Origin: Tautonia marina
Lineage (GTDB): Bacteria > Planctomycetota > Planctomycetia > Isosphaerales > Isosphaeraceae
Length of the DNA: 64,000 nt
NCBI RefSeq assembly: GCF_009177065.1
Contig: NZ_WEZF01000003.1
Coordinates: forward strand, 62,001-126,000
Reading direction: 5' to 3'
The notes below the pieces were generated by a model. That model saw only the letters and a list, made by a program, of their open reading frames with translations, had not been told where the DNA came from and made no database searches. The translations under genes were made by a program, and so were the position numbers. This document shows positions 430-10,219 of the stretch, piece after piece; position 1 is the stretch's first letter; every line of letters starts with the position of its first letter.

Positions 430-575
430 GACTCGCCCCACTGACGTTTTTCCGACACAATGGAGTCATTGCGATTCCAGACGCGTTCGCCCCAGATGGT
501 GGATTCGATGGTCGAGAGCCTTCTGACCACGAAAACCACTGATCGGAATCGCCTGGCATGCTTGTCGGTGATCTG

Positions 576-2339
576 ATGTACAAAGGAATTGCGGTCAGCC
601 CGGGCGTTGTGGTCGGGGTCGCGTACTGCCTGGAAGGCCCGATGGGGCAATCCGAGGTCCAGCGACTGGCTGACGAATCCGACATTCCCGACGAACTCGC
701 CCGATTTGATCATGCCTTGAAACAGGCGTCGGAAGAGCTGGAAGGCATGGTTGCCAAGGTTGCCCAGCAACTCGGGAGTGACGAGGCCGACATCTTTCGG
801 TCGCACTACCAGATGGTGCGTGATCCCTCGCTGGTTGCCAAGGTGCACGAGGGAATTTGTGGATCCCGATTGACGGCGTCGTCGGCCTTGCAGTCGGTTT
901 TGAAAGAGTATGCCTCGATCTTCGCGAGGAGTGGTCAGGAGCTGTTTCAGGAGCGCATGACCGATCTGCGAGATGTCTTCGCAAGGATCACGGCGCATCT
1001 GAACGTAAGTTCGAGCACTTCGGCAGCGATTGACTTGCTCGGTCATGAGGAACCGATCGTTCTGGTGACTCATGAAATCTTGCCGAGCCAGGCGATCAGC
1101 CTCGGTGAAATGCCGATTCACGGAATCGTGACCGAAGTGGGCGGAGGCACGAGCCATGCCGCGATCCTGTCTCGCAGCCGAGGCATCCCCGCCGTTTCCG
1201 GTGCAGCCGGGATTATTGGCCAGGCCAAAACCGGGGATCCGATCGTTGTCGACGGCCGAGATGGCATTGTGGTGCTTCGGCCTGATCCGGAAACCCTGGC
1301 CGCCTACCGCAAGATGCAGCGCGATTTCTTCGAGTTGAAGGATCGGCTGGTCATTAATCGTGATCAACCCGCCTGCCTTTCTGACGGCACGCTGATCGAG
1401 CTCCTGGCCAACGTCAATACGGTTGCCGATGCTACCACGGCCTCGGCGGTGGGTGCTTCGGGGGTTGGTCTGTATCGAACCGAGTACCTCTTTTTGACGC
1501 ATCCGGACGTGCCGGACGAGGACGAGCAATACGAGAATTACCGTCGCGTGATCGAAGCCGCTCCCGATCGCACGGCCACGATCCGAACCCTCGACCTCGG
1601 TGGCGATAAAACGGTTCCTTATCTCGGGCGGCAGCACGAGGCGAACCCATTCATGGGGTGGCGCTCGATTCGGCTTTCGTTTGAACATCCGAAATTTTTC
1701 GAGGTTCAGATTCGAGCGATCCTCCGAGCGGCCTTGCACGGGAAGGTCAGCATCCTCTTTCCGATGATCACGACCCTGGAGGAATTGCAGCACGTAAACC
1801 GGCTGGTCGATGAGGCACGACGAAACCTAAAACGCGCTGGAATTCCTTTTGGAGAAGACGTAAAGACCGGAGTGATGATCGAGGTTCCCGCGGCGGCCAT
1901 GTGTATTGATGCCATGCTGCAGGAAACCGACTTCATCTCAATTGGTTCGAATGACCTGATCCAGTACCTTGTGGCGGCGGATCGAGATAACCCCAAGGTT
2001 GCTCACCTGTGCGATCCGCTCAGCCCTGCCGTCTTGCGCATGCTTCGAATGATCTTCGATGCCTGCCGACGGACGGGAACCCCCGCGACGCTCTGCGGCG
2101 AGATGGCCGGTCAACCTCGGTCGGTTCTGGTTCTGCTGGGGTTGGGGCTCAGACGATTCAGTATGAGCCCGGCCTTCGTGCCAACGATCAAGGCGTTACT
2201 CTCCTCGGTGTCCACTCCGCAAGCGGAACGGTTTGCACATCAGGTGTTACAGCTTAAAACGCGCGAACAAATTCGACGCTATTTGACCGATCGACTTCAT
2301 GAAATTTCGAGAGATCTGGAACTGTTCGACTTCACCTAG
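576..2339 (+). CDS. ptsP: Phosphoenolpyruvate--protein phosphotransferase (PTS enzyme I)
   Basis: Enzyme I takes phosphate from PEP onto a histidine and passes it to HPr. The 587 residues match the usual EI length and architecture: an N-terminal swivel domain starting YKGIAVSPG, the phospho-His signature GGGTSHAAILSRSRGIP with His near residue 194, and a C-terminal PEP-binding TIM barrel with RTLDLGGDK, NPFMGWRSIR, IGSNDLIQYL and the catalytic Cys of LCGEMAG near residue 507. An in-frame ATG at 558 would add six residues. I prefer 576 because homologues begin right before the GIAVSPG strand; neither site has a strong ribosome-binding site. No HPr or EII gene lies beside it, so it probably serves a regulatory PTS encoded elsewhere. 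Confidence 0.93.
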   Translation: MYKGIAVSPGVVVGVAYCLEGPMGQSEVQRLADESDIPDELARFDHALKQASEELEGMVAKVAQQLGSDEADIFRSHYQMVRDPSLVAKVHEGICGSRLTASSALQSVLKEYASIFARSGQELFQERMTDLRDVFARITAHLNVSSSTSAAIDLLGHEEPIVLVTHEILPSQAISLGEMPIHGIVTEVGGGTSHAAILSRSRGIPAVSGAAGIIGQAKTGDPIVVDGRDGIVVLRPDPETLAAYRKMQRDFFELKDRLVINRDQPACLSDGTLIELLANVNTVADATTASAVGASGVGLYRTEYLFLTHPDVPDEDEQYENYRRVIEAAPDRTATIRTLDLGGDKTVPYLGRQHEANPFMGWRSIRLSFEHPKFFEVQIRAILRAALHGKVSILFPMITTLEELQHVNRLVDEARRNLKRAGIPFGEDVKTGVMIEVPAAAMCIDAMLQETDFISIGSNDLIQYLVAADRDNPKVAHLCDPLSPAVLRMLRMIFDACRRTGTPATLCGEMAGQPRSVLVLLGLGLRRFSMSPAFVPTIKALLSSVSTPQAERFAHQVLQLKTREQIRRYLTDRLHEISRDLELFDFT

Positions 2340-2639: not shown

Positions 2640-3986
2640 ATGGCCAATCGACCAAACGTCCAGGAAATCCTTGCAGCCGTTCGAGCTGCGCGGCCGGCAC
2701 CTCCCGAGCGTGAGTCAAACTCCGACGCCCCCGCGCCCTCTCCTGGCCAGGAACCACCCCGAACCGATCTGCCCTCAGTGGCTTCGGATCGCCTCTCTCC
2801 GTCCGAAGGCTCCGACGCATCGGCGGCTTCTGTCACTCCAGAAACTCCGCGTCCCCTGACCTTGCAAGAGAAGCTCGCCGCGGCCCGCAACCGACCAGCA
2901 ACGACGAGCCAGGACGCTCCTGAATCGGCTCCGGTTTCGCTCCCCGACGGGCCTGCGGCCGGAGGACGACCGATGTCGGTCAAGGAGAAGCTTGCCGCGG
3001 CCCGCAATCGCCCGGCGGAGGAGGGGGGCCCCCCCGCACCCTCACCTGCGTCCGAGTCGAAGTCAGCGGAACGTCGTTCTGGGAAACCTACCGCCTCGGA
3101 GCCCTCGGGAACCGAGCCATCGGCTCCGACATCGCCAGGCAGGCCGATGAGTCTTCAGGAAAAGCTCGCCGCAGCCAGAGCCCGACCGGCGATGGACTCA
3201 GCACGACCCGTGGCCAAGAACACGGAGGAACCCTCAGCACGGGTTAAGTCTTCAGATGGGCACGGAGAGAGGGTCGAACGGAAACGTGCTCCGTCGGAAA
3301 AACTCTCCGAACCGCACCGCCTGGCCGAGTCGCTCCGGCGATCGGTCGTGAGCCGGTCTGTCGCAACGAACCGGGCCGCCACCTCCGGGGAGGGTTCAGT
3401 GGCCGCTCTGAGGGCATCTTCACCGGCGATCGGTTTGACTGCGCCTTCTGATCAGACTCGGAGTGAACCTCGCTTTGGGATCCTGGGAACGGGTGGAGCA
3501 CGATGGGTGCTCGGTATCGCCGCGCTCGTGGTCGCGGTCGGATGCACCGGAGTCCTCGTCGCCCGGCAGCTTTCCTCGAATGCCCCGGAGCGGATCAACG
3601 TGGGCCTCCCCTCAAACTTCGAGCCGAATTCTGTGATGAAGGTGAGCACAGCAGCTGAGCCGTTCTGGATTGTCCGCTCAACCGCTTACGATGGACTGGA
3701 CACGATTTACGCCCTTCGAGGCACCTGTCCCGGTGCGGGAGAAGTGGCGATCTGGTCGGAGGAAACACAAACCTTCCGGTGCCCTGGAAGTGCGAGCCAC
3801 TACGCGATCTCGGGGCGACCGATCAAGGGACCGGGCCGCCGAGCACTCGAACGATACCGCGTCGCGCTCACCGAAAACGGTCAAATTGTTGTGGATACGT
3901 CTGAGGAGTTCCGAGAAGAGCTTGGCCAATGGGCCGATCCCGAGAGTTTTGTTCGGTTCCCCTCGGGAGAGGCAAGCCTCCGGTGA
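2640..3986 (+). CDS. Rieske-like membrane protein with four EKLAAAR repeats and incomplete [2Fe-2S] ligands
   Basis: A 448-residue protein in three parts. Residues 1-280 are Pro/Ser/Ala-rich and probably disordered, with four short helical repeats: VQEILAAVRAARPA (7), LQEKLAAARNRPA (75), VKEKLAAARNRPA (114) and LQEKLAAARARPA (172). Residues about 287-309 form one membrane segment. The C-terminal ~130 residues follow a Rieske fold: Cys363, Trp372, FRCPG at 379-383, then GRPIKGPGRRALERYRV. Aligned to the canonical CTHLGC and CPCHGS boxes, both Cys ligands (363, 381) remain, but both His ligands and both disulfide Cys are replaced. It may therefore bind no Rieske cluster, or a different centre. 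Electron-transfer partners are not adjacent. The Rieske relationship is inferred from spacing and the GP-R motif. Confidence 0.72.
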   Translation: MANRPNVQEILAAVRAARPAPPERESNSDAPAPSPGQEPPRTDLPSVASDRLSPSEGSDASAASVTPETPRPLTLQEKLAAARNRPATTSQDAPESAPVSLPDGPAAGGRPMSVKEKLAAARNRPAEEGGPPAPSPASESKSAERRSGKPTASEPSGTEPSAPTSPGRPMSLQEKLAAARARPAMDSARPVAKNTEEPSARVKSSDGHGERVERKRAPSEKLSEPHRLAESLRRSVVSRSVATNRAATSGEGSVAALRASSPAIGLTAPSDQTRSEPRFGILGTGGARWVLGIAALVVAVGCTGVLVARQLSSNAPERINVGLPSNFEPNSVMKVSTAAEPFWIVRSTAYDGLDTIYALRGTCPGAGEVAIWSEETQTFRCPGSASHYAISGRPIKGPGRRALERYRVALTENGQIVVDTSEEFREELGQWADPESFVRFPSGEASLR

Positions 3987-4140
3987 GTCGCCCGCGCCGT
4001 CATTGAAGTACCACGCGAGGGCCAATCGGAACTCTCCCCCGCAGGAGCCATCCCCCCAATAACTTGAGAGAGGTTGAGTGGGACTCTCTCAGCAGACAAA
4101 TTCCCTGGGAGCACCGGGGCACCAGGCCCACGTATGGAGC

Positions 4141-4335
4141 ATGTTCATGACCGCAATCGCACACAATGGAATTCGTTGGACCATTCTGTTCCTGACGATC
4201 CTGGCCGTCACACCCCTTGTCGGTTGTGGGGAACCACAGCCGGGTCTCGAGGGTGCGGTTGTCGTACCGGAACCGGGCACAACAGCTTCGAATGACGCCG
4301 GCGAAGGGGATCAGTCCCTGGAACCACTTGAGTGA
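4141..4335 (+). CDS. Small predicted lipoprotein
   Basis: This 64-residue protein has a basic N-terminus, a hydrophobic core (WTILFLTILAVTP) and a lipobox LVGC with the lipidation Cys at about residue 29. An acidic Gly/Glu-rich mature tail of about 36 residues follows. ATG 4141 or ATG 4147 could start it; GGAG at 4136-4139 is better spaced for 4147. An upstream in-frame GTG at 4078 would push the signal sequence inside the protein and is unlikely. It lies between the Rieske-like gene and the cupredoxin gene. Function unknown. Confidence 0.6.
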   Translation: MFMTAIAHNGIRWTILFLTILAVTPLVGCGEPQPGLEGAVVVPEPGTTASNDAGEGDQSLEPLE

Positions 4336-4398
4336 CGAACTCCGTTCGTTGTTCCACGATCGAGGCCGCTTCCGATCGAGCGTTCTCATTCCGACTGG

Positions 4399-4427
4399 TT
4401 GCGCAGTGACAGTTGATCTGCTAGGAT
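4399..4427 (+). promoter_or_regulatory. Sigma-70-like promoter for the cupredoxin gene
   Basis: TTGCGC at 4399-4404, exactly 17 bases, then TAGGAT at 4422-4427, about 60 bases before the ATG at 4491. Spacing and position suit a vegetative promoter. The -35 matches the consensus only in TTG. Confidence 0.45.
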
Positions 4428-4490
4428 AAGATCACTCGGTTCCTGCCAGACCGTACCCTCCTGAATTTCCTACCGCGAGGACTTTCCCTG

Positions 4491-5273
4491 ATGCGAAGCA
4501 ATTTCTTGACGGCGCGCCGCCTGGTTGCCCTGGGCCTTGGTCTCTCTGTTTCGTTTGGACTGCAGGGCGCGGCCCTGGGACAATATGGCACCCTGAAGGG
4601 TCAGGTGGTGTGGGACGGAGCCCAGCTTCCCCAACTGGAACCGAAGGTCAAGGCCGGGGAAAACGTCAAGGATGCCCAGGTCTGCGCAACGGAACCCATT
4701 CCGGATGAAAGCCTGGTCGTCGATCCGTCCAGCAAGGGGATTCAGTATTGCATTGTCTATCTGGCTCGCCCCAGGGGAGAGAACCCCGATCTGGCCAAGC
4801 AATTGATCGAAGCTGAACCTCAGGTCGTGGTCGATCAGCAGGGCTGCCGGTTTGTCCCGCATGTCGCCGCGGCGCATGAGAAGCAGCAGGTTCTGTTCAA
4901 GTCTAGCGATCCCGTCGCCCACAACGTTCGCTTGCAAGGCTTTAGCAACTCGTTGAATTTCATGCTCCCCGCCAACGGTGAACTGCCTCGGGTTCTCTCT
5001 CCCGAGCGGCGTCCGATGCCGATGGCGTGCGACATTCATCCGTGGATGCAAGGCTTTGTCATGGTGTTCGATCACCCGTTTTTCGCCATTACGGACGAGC
5101 AGGGCAACTTTGAAATCGAAGGGATTCCCGCAGGCAAGCAAAACCTTGTCATCTGGCATGAGAAGGTTGGATATGTGACCGCCGGTGGAGCCCGAGGCCA
5201 GGAAGTGACCATCGCCTCCGGGAAGGAATCAACACTTGCCCCGGTGAAGATCGCACCCAGCCAGATTAAGTAA
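4491..5273 (+). CDS. Secreted cupredoxin-fold protein with carboxypeptidase-regulatory-like tail
   Basis: 260 residues with a signal peptide (residues about 1-30, cleavage near ALG-QYG). The central part looks like a type 1 copper fold: His144 in DPVAHNVR, then Cys180, His183 and Met186 in ACDIHPWMQGF, the usual His-Cys-His-Met set. The segment after it (ITDEQGNFEIEGIPAGKQNL) is the signature of a carboxypeptidase-regulatory-like beta-sandwich. Related planctomycete proteins are often annotated as plastocyanin or methylamine-utilisation-like. Its role is probably periplasmic electron transfer or copper binding; the partner is not identifiable here. It has its own promoter at 4399-4427 and a structured element just downstream. 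Confidence 0.78.
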   Translation: MRSNFLTARRLVALGLGLSVSFGLQGAALGQYGTLKGQVVWDGAQLPQLEPKVKAGENVKDAQVCATEPIPDESLVVDPSSKGIQYCIVYLARPRGENPDLAKQLIEAEPQVVVDQQGCRFVPHVAAAHEKQQVLFKSSDPVAHNVRLQGFSNSLNFMLPANGELPRVLSPERRPMPMACDIHPWMQGFVMVFDHPFFAITDEQGNFEIEGIPAGKQNLVIWHEKVGYVTAGGARGQEVTIASGKESTLAPVKIAPSQIK

Positions 5274-5354: not shown

Positions 5355-5743
5355 TCATCGAGGGTGGTACTCCCCTCGGGACGAGAATGGGGCGCAACGG
5401 GTTCATTGCTCCTCTGCGCAGCGATCCTGCTAAATTCGAGGGCAAGATTTGGAAAAGGAGGGCTTGTCGACCGCTTGCCGACGCCCATATCCTAAAGAAA
5501 GGAAGGAGGCACGCAAATTGCGTGGAATGATTTCCTCCTTGAGATTCTGAACGGTTCGCAGATTCGCAATCATTGGCCCAGATCAGGGTCAACAACTTGA
5601 TACAGAAGGCACGCGACGTCGGTTCCGATCACGAGCCAACCAGGATCGAGTGCGTCAGGGTCAGATCGCGGAGAACGCTTCGATCACCCCGTCGTTGGGG
5701 GACCGCTGGAACGCTCGGCCGGCAAATCACGGAAGGAGCGCCG
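5355..5743. other. Intergenic leader upstream of the PQQ-repeat gene
   Basis: About 390 bases with no convincing gene. The downstream frame is open from 5573, but nothing there looks like protein before the signal peptide encoded at 5744. I do not see a clean promoter. Confidence 0.35.
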
Positions 5744-8700
5744 ATGTTCCCATATGCGCCACGCCCCTGTGCCCGTTTCCGTCGGCTGCGTGTCTCATTC
5801 CTCGTCATTCTGATTCTCTCCTCACTTTCTCTCGTAAGTCTCCCCGCCGAGGGAGCCCAAAGGCTTCCGTCCACAATCCATCCAGAAACCAGTAGCGCAG
5901 CGGAAGCCTTGCTCAAGACCGCGGCGTCCCACGTTCATCAGCAGCAATGGGATTCGGCCGTTGAACTCTATCAGCGAGCGATCCAGCAGTTTCCCGAAGC
6001 GCTCACTGTGGCCGAGACGCTGGACGAGGGCGGCAGAGAGGTGGATGAGGGGGTCGAGGTTTTTGTCAACGTGAGCGAATACGCTCAACGTCGGATCGCG
6101 CTCCTTCCGGCCGAGGCGTTGCAACTCTACCGGAACCGGATTGACGGAGAAGCTCGTCACCTGTTCGAGCAGGGTCGAGACCAGCTTGATCCAATCCTCT
6201 TACGACGGGTTGTTGATCAGTTCTTCAGCAGTTCGGTTGGTGATGATGCGACGGAGTTGCTCGCCGACCTCGCATTCCAGGAAGGCCGATTTGACGAGGC
6301 ACTGGAACTCTATCGCCGACTGGTCCCATCGAGCGATGCTGGTCGGGCATCATCGATTTATCCTGATCCCAACATCGACATTGCCAAGGTTGCCGCAAAA
6401 CTGATTCTCTGCACCGAGGCACTCGGTCAGCGAACGGGCGACTCGGATTTGCAGAAGTATGCGGAGTTGTACCCAGAATCCTCCGGTGATCTGGCTGGAC
6501 GTCGTGGCCTCTATGCCGAGATTCTGGCCTCCGCTCTGGAACAGGATCAACTCAGACTCCCTGCAGCGCTGGATTCGAGATGGCCGACGTTCGCTGGTGC
6601 CTCCTCTCGCTCGAAGGAGCTGGCGGAGCCGGTCGATCCGGGGGCCCTGGTCTGGTCGATCCCGTTGCGAACGCCGTTTGACGCCAGCGCGAATCTGGAG
6701 GCAAGTCCTCGGCGGTTTGGTCAGGATTTCGGCATGCCCGAGGATGATTTTCCCTCGTTTTTCCCGGTTCTGGAGGGAGACGAGGTATTCCTGACCGATG
6801 GGCGTTCGGTGCTTGGCTATCCACTTGAGGGGAGTCCGGACGGGATGGCCATGCCAGTGCCGTCCTGGCGGGCTTCCCCTCCCGCATCGGCCCCCTCAGC
6901 CGCCCAACCGACGTTCGGCGTCGAACGGCATACCCTGACGATCTTCGGGAATCGAATTTACGCGAGACTCGGGCCCTATGGGGCGGCCTTTCAGGGGAGA
7001 AACCTATCGACGGCACCCCCTACGGCAATCATCGCGGTCGATCGTTCCCGGCCCGAATCCCCTCTCTGGATTCAGACCGCAGATCAGGTGATGGCCGGTC
7101 CCGGTCAGGAAAACCAAGGGGTTTTGACCGGACAGGTGGCGTTTGGAGGCGCTCCCATCGTCGATGAGAGCGGGGTCTATGTGGTCCTCTTGAAACCGGG
7201 GACGCAAGCTCTGACCTGGGTGGCGTGTCTGGAACCCGATACGGGGCAGGCACGTTGGGTCCGATTCGTGTGCTCGGGAACCTCTGCCAGCTTCAGCCGG
7301 GTTCCAGGGGCTCGAAACCGCGGCATGATCGTGAATCCGGAGCTGGGACATCGGCTCCTTTCGCTTGGCGGCTCGACGATTTTTTACCAAACGGATCTCG
7401 GGGCGCTTGCCTCGATCGATGCTCGATCGGGTCGGTTGAACTGGCTGGCGTCGTATCCCAGGCGGATGGCGGGAGTCTCTGGTCTGGCCACACCGGTCAC
7501 GCATAATCCCGCGATCGTCCATGCCGACAAGGTGATTGTCGCTCCGGAAGATACCGACCGCGTGCTTGCGTTTGATCGCTCGAGCGGCCAGCTCCTCTGG
7601 GAGGCCAATCCCGGGGGACGTGTGACTCACCTGCTCGGTGTCGCTGGAGGAAAGCTGGTCGTCACGGGAAATCATGTCTGGACGATCGACGTCGAAGACG
7701 GCAGCATCCGATCGCGGTGGCCCGAGGGGCAGACCCTGGAACAAGGATACGGCCGAGGATTGTTGGCGGGAGGGGAGATTTACTGGCCGACCCGAGACAC
7801 GCTCTACATCCTCGATCAGGTCACCGGCCGGCCGACCGACCGACCTCCGATCGCCCTCCGCGAGGCTTTCGGCTGCGGTGGGGGAAATCTGGTCGCTGGC
7901 GACGGCTACCTGCTCATTGCCGAACGAGATCATTTACGAGTCTTCTGCAAACCGACACGAATGCTCCGCTATTATCGGGAGCGAATCGCGGCGGAACCGG
8001 AGAAGCCGGACCTTTATTATCGCCTGGCTCGTACCGCGGAGACACTCGGCGAGGACCAGGAAGCGCTGGAAAGCCTGGATCGCGTGGCCGAACTTGCAAG
8101 TCCCTCCGACCGCATCGATGGTCGTCGGCTTGTCGAGGCGGCTCGAGCCGAACGCTTCAAGATCCATATGAAGCTGGCCACGGCAGCTTCCAATCAGGGG
8201 GATCCCCAGTTTGCCTCTGAACAGTTTGAACTGGCGATTGCCACGGCTCCTGATGATCGGGAGCGCATAGAGGCCGAACTGGCTTTGGCCAATGCCAGAC
8301 ATGCCGTTGGGGCATCGGCCGAAGCCGTCGAGGTCCTCCAAACCGCGTTGAGCCGCCCTGAAGTTCGTGAAATTGACCTCCCGGCAGACGAACATCGGAG
8401 CCTTCGGGCTGAACTGCTGCTGGTGGATCGCTTGCGATGGCTCATTCAGGAATCCGGGCCGGAGCGTTATGCACGATTCGAGACCGAGGCGTCCGAGTTA
8501 TTTCGGAACGGGCGGAAGAATGACGACCTGCGTCAGCTTGGCGAAGTCGTTCGTCGATACCCTGTCTCACGTCATGTTCCCGACGCACTCGAAGCCATCG
8601 GCACGCTTTCCGAGGAACGTGGGGATTGGTCCGAGGCAGCCCGAGCGTATCATCAACTTCTGATCTCTGCTCAGGAGGATCGGCAACGGGCGATTGGGCT

Positions 8701-10219
8701 CCTCGGACTTGCTCGCTGCTACGAGGCAATTGACCTCGACACCGAGGCTCACGAGGCGTATTTGCTGGCTGGATCGCGTTATGGGGCGTTGGAGATTGAG
8801 CGATCGGGGACGGTCCAACGGATCGAATCGTATGTGGCCGATCGCCTGGCGTCTGCTCACGAACGGCCCGAGGCGCAAGCTCCCGTATTAACTCCGCCGC
8901 TCGATTCGATCGAACGTTCTCAATGGCCTTCGGAATTCGCTCCGTTGCCGATCGCCGAGCCCGCGATTCGACCGATCTCGGGAACTCATCGTCCTGAGGT
9001 GTTGATCGGCCAGGGTCAATTGCGCGGAGTCGAACCGGATTCGGGGGAAATTCTCTGGGAGTGGAACCTGGCAACCCGACCATCCTGGTCGGGCATTGCG
9101 GGGGGGCATTTAATTCTCGCGACTTCCGACCGGATTCTCGGGTTCGACCCGATTAAAGGCGAACCCCGCTGGGACGTGCATTCGAAGGATGGAGAACTTG
9201 CGTTCGGTCCCACTCCGCCGCCACCAGTCGCGGAAGCAGACCGGCGCGACCGACAGCCTGCGTTGTCCGGGTTTCAAGGGTTTCGGCTTCATGGTGATCG
9301 GCTCTATTTCTTTCGAGGCGACCGAGAATTGGTTTGCCTCGATCCGATCGCCGGCCGCCCGCAGTGGACGTACCGCACCTCGGCCATCTCGCTGGATTCA
9401 CACCTGGGGGTGGGACTTGCCCGAGTCGTGATCCAGGCTCGCATGCCCAACGCAGTGGTCGTTCTCGATGCCCGAGATGGCAGAACTCTCGGTATGTTCC
9501 CACAGGACGATTCGGTCGGTCCCTGGCGTCGTCACCCTCACGCCGTGGCCCTGGATCGGGTCGCGATCGTGCCGGACGATACCTCCGTGGTCTTGATGGA
9601 TCTCGAAACCGGCCAGGCAATCTGGGAGGCTCGGGAAGAGTCTCCCCTGCCATCGTCGCCTCGGCCATCACCGACTGATCCCCTCGTGCTGGGAGATTTC
9701 GAGCGCATGCTCGTCCTTCGGGGCGAAACGCTGCAACGGCTCGATCCGATCAACGGACAAGTTCTTTGGTCAACGAACCTGGGGCGATTTCGATCGGATC
9801 GCCGGCACGAGTCGATCCTGCTCGGAACCGACGCAGTGTATGTGATGGGTCAAAAGGGGCCCGGCCTTCGCGTGTCCGCGTTGTCGTTGGAGCGTGGCGA
9901 ACCCTTCTGGAGTGTCGTGCTTCCGGGTGATCTCAACGAGTCATGGGGTCTCAGGCTGACCCCCGACTGTGTCCTGGTCTACCACCTTGGCGACGGGACG
10001 CCGGGCATGGCATCCAGCGGCCCCGTGGTCCTTAATCTCCTGAGTCGAGACTCCGGCCGCCGGGTTCAGCGGTTGGTCGTTGAGGGAACGGGAGCGGGCC
10101 GTCTGGTCCGCCTTCATTCTGACGGGATTCGTGTGGCCGGAGACGAGGGAATGGTTCGCCTGTCAGAGTGGAAGCCGCATGAACGGCAAGCGGCCTTGCG
10201 AGAATTCTCGACACCTTGA
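5744..10219 (+). CDS. Very large exported PQQ-repeat (BamB-like beta-propeller) protein with TPR-like helices
   Basis: 1491 residues. I chose ATG 5744 because GGAAGGAG (5731-5738) sits just upstream and the following residues are a good signal sequence (RFRRLRVSFLVILILSSLSL). The N-terminal ~250 residues are TPR-like (AVELYQRAIQQFPEAL; FDEALELYRRLVP). There follow two blocks of PQQ-type propeller blades (RSSGQLLWEANPGG, DSGEILWEWNLA, IAGRPQWTYRTS, INGQVLWSTNLG), separated by another TPR-rich stretch at about residues 740-1050 (RLARTAETLGEDQEALESL). This is an exported protein-interaction scaffold. It lies directly upstream of the MoxR operon on the same strand with a 142-base gap, so a shared role is possible but unproven. 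Confidence 0.82.
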   Translation: MFPYAPRPCARFRRLRVSFLVILILSSLSLVSLPAEGAQRLPSTIHPETSSAAEALLKTAASHVHQQQWDSAVELYQRAIQQFPEALTVAETLDEGGREVDEGVEVFVNVSEYAQRRIALLPAEALQLYRNRIDGEARHLFEQGRDQLDPILLRRVVDQFFSSSVGDDATELLADLAFQEGRFDEALELYRRLVPSSDAGRASSIYPDPNIDIAKVAAKLILCTEALGQRTGDSDLQKYAELYPESSGDLAGRRGLYAEILASALEQDQLRLPAALDSRWPTFAGASSRSKELAEPVDPGALVWSIPLRTPFDASANLEASPRRFGQDFGMPEDDFPSFFPVLEGDEVFLTDGRSVLGYPLEGSPDGMAMPVPSWRASPPASAPSAAQPTFGVERHTLTIFGNRIYARLGPYGAAFQGRNLSTAPPTAIIAVDRSRPESPLWIQTADQVMAGPGQENQGVLTGQVAFGGAPIVDESGVYVVLLKPGTQALTWVACLEPDTGQARWVRFVCSGTSASFSRVPGARNRGMIVNPELGHRLLSLGGSTIFYQTDLGALASIDARSGRLNWLASYPRRMAGVSGLATPVTHNPAIVHADKVIVAPEDTDRVLAFDRSSGQLLWEANPGGRVTHLLGVAGGKLVVTGNHVWTIDVEDGSIRSRWPEGQTLEQGYGRGLLAGGEIYWPTRDTLYILDQVTGRPTDRPPIALREAFGCGGGNLVAGDGYLLIAERDHLRVFCKPTRMLRYYRERIAAEPEKPDLYYRLARTAETLGEDQEALESLDRVAELASPSDRIDGRRLVEAARAERFKIHMKLATAASNQGDPQFASEQFELAIATAPDDRERIEAELALANARHAVGASAEAVEVLQTALSRPEVREIDLPADEHRSLRAELLLVDRLRWLIQESGPERYARFETEASELFRNGRKNDDLRQLGEVVRRYPVSRHVPDALEAIGTLSEERGDWSEAARAYHQLLISAQEDRQRAIGLLGLARCYEAIDLDTEAHEAYLLAGSRYGALEIERSGTVQRIESYVADRLASAHERPEAQAPVLTPPLDSIERSQWPSEFAPLPIAEPAIRPISGTHRPEVLIGQGQLRGVEPDSGEILWEWNLATRPSWSGIAGGHLILATSDRILGFDPIKGEPRWDVHSKDGELAFGPTPPPPVAEADRRDRQPALSGFQGFRLHGDRLYFFRGDRELVCLDPIAGRPQWTYRTSAISLDSHLGVGLARVVIQARMPNAVVVLDARDGRTLGMFPQDDSVGPWRRHPHAVALDRVAIVPDDTSVVLMDLETGQAIWEAREESPLPSSPRPSPTDPLVLGDFERMLVLRGETLQRLDPINGQVLWSTNLGRFRSDRRHESILLGTDAVYVMGQKGPGLRVSALSLERGEPFWSVVLPGDLNESWGLRLTPDCVLVYHLGDGTPGMASSGPVVLNLLSRDSGRRVQRLVVEGTGAGRLVRLHSDGIRVAGDEGMVRLSEWKPHERQAALREFSTP

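What the first reader, a model, noticed from the sequence alone, without database searches (positions are those of the whole stretch)
2640..3986. Rieske-fold protein that keeps only the two Cys ligands and carries four EKLAAAR repeats
The C-terminal domain aligns with Rieske proteins through the Trp, F-x-C and GP-x-R landmarks. Of the two boxes, however, only Cys363 and Cys381 survive; both His ligands and both disulfide cysteines are replaced (Gly, Ser, Glu, Gly). It may bind another metal, form a Cys-Cys switch, or be purely structural. The N-terminus has four copies of an xQEKLAAARxRPA helix in a disordered region, as if to dock several partners in the cytoplasm.
Basis: partly seen in the sequence, partly recalled or inferred. 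Interest (0 to 1): 0.58.

Follow-up and report, generated by a model that had tools for sequence, protein, structure and literature searches.

The report
Rieske protein without its iron-sulfur cluster
In one genus of planctomycete bacteria a respiratory-chain protein has lost the residues that hold its iron-sulfur cluster, and its partner genes are gone, yet the gene is still kept by selection, apparently for its membrane anchor and its repeated helix motif.

Summary
The 448-aa protein at 2640-3986 has a Rieske fold in which both His ligands (G365, S384) and both disulfide Cys (E368, G383) are replaced and only C363 and C381 remain. The N-terminus has three exact EKLAAAR repeats plus one diverged copy, not four.

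It is a decayed descendant of an ordinary Rieske subunit. In relatives the same repeat-bearing gene keeps CxH...CxCH (27 of 30 family loci; 79 of 80 GTDB loci) and is followed by cytochrome b6, a PetD-like subunit and a multihaem cytochrome c. All exceptions are Tautonia. In its four genomes those three genes, both His and the twin-arginine motif are lost. It is not junk: omega is 0.23 for anchor plus domain, 0.16 for helix/repeat blocks, about 1.2 for linkers.

Cysteines were lost in pairs (window species and sister keep the ligand pair, T. sociabilis only the disulfide pair, the fourth species all four), which argues against a new metal site. And G005, another genus, lost the complex separately and keeps repeats plus anchor with no Rieske domain. 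The repeat-anchor module probably works independently of electron transfer; its partner is unknown.

The parts
2640..3986 (+). Whole gene: cluster-less Rieske-fold protein with cytoplasmic repeats, 448 aa
2640..2699 (+). Residues 1-20, diverged copy of the helix repeat (MANRPNVQEILAAVRAARPA); conserved N-terminus of the whole subfamily
2850..2900 (+). Repeat 1, RPLTLQEKLAAARNRPA (residues 71-87)
2967..3017 (+). Repeat 2, RPMSVKEKLAAARNRPA (residues 110-126)
3141..3191 (+). Repeat 3, RPMSLQEKLAAARARPA (residues 168-184)
3303..3344 (+). Conserved helix block LSEPHRLAESLRRS (canonical: DPKDLAEALRQ), residues 222-235
3495..3575 (+). Transmembrane helix, residues 286-312; no RRx[FLIVMW] motif before it
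3585..3959 (+). Rieske-fold domain, residues 316-440, without the [2Fe-2S] ligand set
3726..3728 (+). Cys363, position of the first ligand Cys
3780..3782 (+). Cys381, position of the second ligand Cys
3987..4490 (.). Place where relatives carry cytochrome b6, PetD-like subunit and multihaem cytochrome c genes; here only a small lipoprotein-like ORF (4078-4335)
558..2339 (+). Upstream neighbour kept in synteny: PtsI (phosphoenolpyruvate-protein phosphotransferase)
4491..5273 (+). Downstream neighbour kept in synteny: carboxypeptidase-regulatory-like protein that ends the canonical operon in relatives

Best explanation
Shown by sequence: the gene descends from the Rieske subunit of a b6f-like Rieske/cytochrome b complex (Rieske, cytochrome b6, PetD-like subunit, multihaem cytochrome c). 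In Tautonia the other three genes are gone. The Rieske subunit has lost its cluster ligands and its twin-arginine motif, but its reading frame, transmembrane anchor, helix repeats and fold stay under purifying selection. Inferred: the losses happened in the ancestor of the genus; the protein carries no [2Fe-2S] cluster and moves no electrons. It works as a membrane-anchored scaffold whose cytoplasmic tail of three or four EKLAAAR-type helices on neutral linkers docks one or more partners. The periplasmic Rieske shell is a structural cap, held in each species by at least one remaining Cys pair. The repeats had this docking role already in the canonical complex, which is why they outlast it.
For: Ligands kept in 27 of 30 family loci and 79 of 80 GTDB loci; all exceptions are Tautonia, whose 4 of 4 held genomes carry one degenerate copy. 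Cytochrome b lies directly downstream in 78 of 80 loci; the exceptions are T. sociabilis and L096. The four Tautonia genomes have one cytochrome b each, in G000 in another operon, and no PetD-like or multihaem protein, while the positive controls G038 and G004 have both. The order PtsI - Rieske-like - downstream protein is kept with exactly three genes missing. RRx[FLIVMW] before the anchor: 68 of 73 sequences scored; the five without are the four Tautonia and one truncated at a contig end (10 of 83 not scored for want of an anchor residue). Selection, window species against sister G041: omega 0.155 (helix blocks) and 0.233 (anchor plus domain), both significantly below 1; linkers 1.16; dS about 1 in this gene and three neighbours. 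Simulated neutral decay gave 10-14 stops on average at 0.5-1.2 substitutions per site and no stop-free run (0 of 300 at each of three divergences). The cluster subdomain, the most conserved part in canonical proteins (0.92 mean identity), is less conserved in Tautonia than the two basal parts (0.37 against 0.45 and 0.51). G005: repeats plus anchor without Rieske domain at the same locus, sister in a PtsI tree to G004, which has the full operon (supports 0.992 and 0.998).
Against: No partner of the repeats is known, and no expression or biochemical data were seen. The domain has omega 0.20-0.24 against 0.002-0.054 in canonical pairs, so slow decay after a fairly recent loss cannot be fully excluded. 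Only four species of one genus carry the cluster-less form. G005 rests on one assembly and one gene tree. The linker omega depends on an uncertain alignment (29% identity). Two ligand Cys remain in three of four species, so some metal binding in those species is not excluded.
Confidence: 0.6

Rival explanations
1. Gene in slow decay: nothing is selected any more, and the open frame is a leftover of the deleted operon.
For: Omega of the domain is 0.20-0.24 against 0.002-0.054 in canonical pairs; the cluster subdomain is degraded; G018 has lost the gene altogether.
Against: Omega is significantly below 1 (LRT 38.8 for anchor plus domain, 29.2 for helix blocks); intact frames in 4 of 4 species; neutral simulations give no stop-free frame in 900 runs; EKLAAAR cores unchanged in protein although codons differ.
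Confidence: 0.15
2. Cys363 and Cys381 bind another metal or a different cluster, giving a new redox or metal-sensing function.
For: Both ligand Cys are kept in three of four species. By analogy, cluster-less plant mFDX-like holds a single metal ion through its residual Cys and a His (PMC10069907, passages).
Against: T. sociabilis has Ala and Ser at these positions; the His positions are G/S, G/T, I/D and P/D. No other conserved ligand set was seen.
Confidence: 0.1
3. The cluster-less domain has been recruited into the remaining bc-type complex (G000:C2) as an accessory subunit.
For: One cytochrome b remains in each Tautonia genome, in G000 beside its own intact Rieske gene; the basal parts of the fold, which could sit on a complex, are the better conserved parts. 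Cluster-less ferredoxin as a structural complex I subunit is a precedent (PMC10069907, passages).
Against: No genetic linkage to the bc operon; relatives with a single large cytochrome b, such as G012 and G018, have no such protein. Nothing tested binding.
Confidence: 0.12

Closest known systems
Kustd1480 and Kuste4569 of Kuenenia stuttgartiensis (PDB 9rk3, 9rk4), Rieske subunits of b6f-like complexes with multihaem cytochrome c (PMC12954380; abstract, introduction and part of section 3.1 read)
   Same: Closest solved relatives by sequence and fold; parent complexes have a b6-like cytochrome b, a subunit-IV-like protein and multihaem cytochrome c, like the operon of the canonical relatives.
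   Different: They coordinate [2Fe-2S] with two His and two Cys and have the disulfide; here both His and the disulfide Cys are gone and the complex genes are absent.
Canonical EKLAAAR-repeat Rieske proteins of Isosphaeraceae (e.g. Singulisphaera acidiphila, L050)
   Same: Same N-terminus, repeats, anchor, domain and gene neighbourhood; orthologous position.
   Different: They keep CTHLGC and CPCHGS, the RRxF-type motif and the downstream b6, PetD-like and multihaem genes.
Arabidopsis mitochondrial ferredoxin-like, mFDX-like (PMC10069907; passages read)
   Same: An electron carrier that lost a cluster ligand, binds no Fe-S cluster and is kept for a structural role in a respiratory complex.
   Different: Ferredoxin fold, eukaryotic, still part of its complex; here the whole partner complex is gone.
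NirD, small subunit of assimilatory nitrite reductase (recalled; two paper searches found nothing)
   Same: Recalled as a Rieske-like fold without the cluster ligands.
   Different: Recalled as soluble and cytoplasmic, without anchor or repeats. Not compared here.

Membership tests
Rieske [2Fe-2S] protein (functional) | Rieske fold | tested here: met
   phmmer to 9rk3 E=1.6e-16; model with alignment Z=19.2 to 9rk3. That model leans on the alignment of relatives.
Rieske [2Fe-2S] protein (functional) | Two Cys and two His cluster ligands | tested here: not met
   C363, G365, C381, S384; in all four Tautonia species both His are replaced
Rieske [2Fe-2S] protein (functional) | Second Cys pair forming the disulfide (respiratory Rieske proteins) | tested here: not met
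   E368 and G383; the pair is kept in T. sociabilis and G040
Rieske [2Fe-2S] protein (functional) | Pfam PF00355 curated cut-off | tested here: not met
   13.5 bits against 20.3; 17.2 bits in the genome search
Rieske [2Fe-2S] protein (functional) | Cluster seen by EPR or absorption | not testable with these tools
   needs purified protein
Rieske subunit of a Rieske/cytochrome b complex | Partner cytochrome b gene next to it | tested here: not met
   none at this locus; the only cytochrome b of the genome has its own intact Rieske elsewhere
Rieske subunit of a Rieske/cytochrome b complex | Twin-arginine motif before the anchor | tested here: not met
   absent in 4 of 4 Tautonia; present in 68 of the other 69 scored, the one exception being cut at a contig end. 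T. sociabilis has RRPRL, which does not fit RRx[FLIVMW].
EKLAAAR-repeat Rieske subfamily of Isosphaeraceae | MAxRPxVxEIL N-terminus, EKLAAAR repeats, one anchor, Rieske fold, PtsI upstream | tested here: met
   PtsI is not adjacent in every canonical member

The most novel reading that the evidence does not exclude
The EKLAAAR-repeat tail is an autonomous, membrane-anchored docking module of Isosphaeraceae that was carried on a respiratory Rieske subunit and outlives it. Where the complex is lost, selection can keep the tail and let the redox domain lose its cluster (Tautonia) or vanish (G005). That would mean these Rieske/b complexes have a cytoplasmic recruiting function separable from electron transfer.
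Probability: 0.4. Interest if true: 0.68.

Novelty: new variant of a known kind. Interest (0 to 1): 0.52.

Why it matters
It is a stepwise natural experiment in which a respiratory Rieske subunit outlives its complex, loses cluster ligands and export motif together, and stays under selection. It points to a docking function of the repeat tail for which I found no description (searches, open-licence PMC text only), and gives a clean system for testing what the Rieske fold needs once the cluster is gone.

Tried and rejected
New metal site conserved in the genus: rejected, T. sociabilis lacks both ligand Cys. A second, canonical repeat-Rieske in the same genome: none in 4 of 4 Tautonia genomes. 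Assembly error: rejected, four genomes agree on ligand loss and gene order. The first scan of genome contigs with the single protein found nothing; the alignment scan gave 109 relatives, of which 80 were kept, so 29 were not examined. More domain-less repeat proteins: only G005 in 45 family genomes (weak hits in seven other genomes, five of them canonical repeat-Rieske genes by position, G030:C1 and G015:C52 not followed). In six genomes or contigs without a canonical match the neighbourhood of the downstream protein was read; the other eight of the 14 were not. Link between repeats and PtsI: not strict, several repeat-bearing loci have no PtsI hit nearby. Pairwise loss of Cys as a statistical claim: only two loss lineages, chance about 1 in 9 by simple counting, so offered as a hint only. 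Omega estimates for pairs other than G000-G041 often have saturated dS and are not leaned on. Literature on cluster-less Rieske proteins: searches gave nothing on point, except the ferredoxin analogy from 67.

Full report
Observation. The ORF at 2640-3986 encodes 448 residues. From the N-terminus it has a long low-complexity tail with three exact EKLAAAR repeats and one diverged copy at the very start, a conserved helix block (LSEPHRLAESLRRS), one transmembrane helix (residues 286-312) and a Rieske-fold domain. Pfam Rieske is below cut-off, NCBIfam gives a weak PetC match (E=1.8e-07, far below its cut-off), but phmmer finds the Kuenenia Rieske 9rk3 at E=1.6e-16. The model made with 45 aligned sequences has pLDDT 90.9 and aligns with 9rk3 at Z=19.2 and 1.5 A. 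Since that alignment is mostly canonical relatives it leans towards their fold; the single-sequence model is poor (pLDDT 56.2), yet its top PDB matches are again Rieske domains. Ligand positions: C363, G365 (His), E368 (disulfide Cys), C381, G383 (disulfide Cys), S384 (His).

Relatives. A search of the 45 held genomes of the family found homologues in 31. Of the 30 with fetched loci, 27 keep both boxes; the three that do not (G000, G040, G041) are one genus, and the fourth genome of that genus, G042, does not either. In GTDB contigs the alignment scan kept 80 of 109 relatives; 79 of 80 are canonical and the exception is Tautonia sociabilis, whose contig length equals that of G042:C11. The genus is therefore Tautonia; G040 fits T. 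plasticadhaerens (chromosome 8.67 Mb; PMC7716859, passages). The two samples overlap in genomes. The repeats are found in Isosphaeraceae-like loci (L049-L069, except the truncated L062) and not in the more distant loci L070-L128.

Lost complex. In canonical relatives the order is PtsI, Rieske, cytochrome b6 (PF00033), a PetD-like protein of about 530 aa (PF00032), a multihaem cytochrome c of about 1200 aa (PF00034 and others), then a carboxypeptidase-regulatory-like protein. PtsI is not adjacent in all of them. Cytochrome b follows in 78 of 80 loci (not in L052 = T. sociabilis and not in L096, which is a canonical protein and was not explained). In the four Tautonia loci the three complex genes are missing between the Rieske-like gene and the last protein. 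Each Tautonia genome has one cytochrome b; in G000 it lies beside an intact Rieske gene at another place. PetD-like and multihaem proteins were not found in any Tautonia genome, while G038 and G004 gave both. This parent complex resembles the Kuenenia complexes described in PMC12954380 (introduction read).

What was lost with the cluster. Beyond the ligands, RRx[FLIVMW] before the anchor is gone in the four Tautonia proteins; it is present in 68 of the 69 others that could be scored (one is cut at a contig end), and 10 of 83 could not be scored. T. sociabilis has RRPRL near the anchor, which I count as not matching. Tat exports folded proteins and the Rieske subunit is a Tat substrate in Pseudomonas (PMC8432897, passages); that a protein without a cofactor no longer needs Tat is my inference. 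The cluster subdomain is the most conserved part in canonical proteins (mean identity 0.92 against 0.69 and 0.77 for the basal parts) and less conserved than the basal parts in Tautonia (0.37 against 0.45 and 0.51).

Is it still selected? For G000 against G041 dS is near 1 in this gene and in three neighbours. Omega is 0.233 for anchor plus domain (LRT 38.8 against 1), 0.155 for helix blocks defined from G000 alone (LRT 29.2), and 1.16 for linkers (LRT 0.3). PtsI has 0.013 and twelve canonical Rieske pairs 0.002-0.054, some with saturated dS. So selection is relaxed but present, and it sits on the helices, the anchor and the fold. Neutral simulations never kept the frame open (0 of 300 at each of three divergences). 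The 11 EKLAAAR copies in the four genomes use several codon spellings; since they were picked by their protein motif, this alone is not proof.

Cysteine pairs. G040 keeps all four Cys, T. sociabilis only the disulfide pair, G000 and G041 only the ligand pair; no species is left with mixed single Cys. In a Rieske fold both pairs bridge the same two loops (recalled), so one cross-link could be kept in every species. With two loss lineages this is a hint. It does speak against a metal site shared by the genus.

Second lineage. G005, another genus, has at the same locus (PtsI upstream, small lipoprotein-like ORF and the same downstream protein) a 267-aa protein with the N-terminus, repeat-like helices (one exact EKLAAAR, two variants) and an anchor, ending there, with no Rieske domain and no Pfam match of note. 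It has a single cytochrome b and no PetD-like or multihaem protein. In a PtsI tree of 19 sequences G005 pairs with G004, which has the full operon (0.992), and Tautonia is their sister (0.998). If this single-gene tree with long branches is right, the complex was lost twice and the repeat-anchor part was kept twice. G018 has lost all of it.

Reading. The simplest account is that the Rieske subunit had two jobs: electron transfer, which ended with the complex, and a cytoplasmic docking job of the repeat tail, which continues. The first half is well supported; the docking job is inferred from conservation, and the partner is unknown. Slow decay, a new metal site, and recruitment into the remaining bc complex are rivals. 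A structural precedent is the plant mFDX-like protein (PMC10069907, passages). No paper was found on this protein (searches; open-licence PMC text only).

Noticed in passing
G000:C2:215469-218729 (L005): An ordinary bc-type operon with an intact Rieske protein (CPHLAC...CPCHAS) and a cytochrome b carrying a C-terminal CxxCH motif; the only cytochrome b of this genome.
   Followed up: partly
4078-4335: Small lipoprotein-like ORF (signal-peptide-like stretch ending in GCGE) between the Rieske-like gene and the downstream protein; similar small ORFs sit at the same place in G005 and G018.
   Followed up: no
L130:8616-9419 (-): Repeat-plus-anchor protein of G005 without a Rieske domain, 267 aa, at the syntenic place.
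   Followed up: yes
L096: Canonical Rieske protein (Pirellulales MAG) without a cytochrome b hit in 20 kb.
   Followed up: no
L066, L068, L069: Contigs titled 'Candidatus Kuenenia stuttgartiensis' carry EKLAAAR-repeat Rieske genes of the Isosphaeraceae type; probably mislabelled records.
   Followed up: no
5573-10219: Large protein with TPR and PQQ/BamB-type beta-propeller matches downstream of the locus; relatives lie at the same place in G040, G042, G005 and G018.
   Followed up: no
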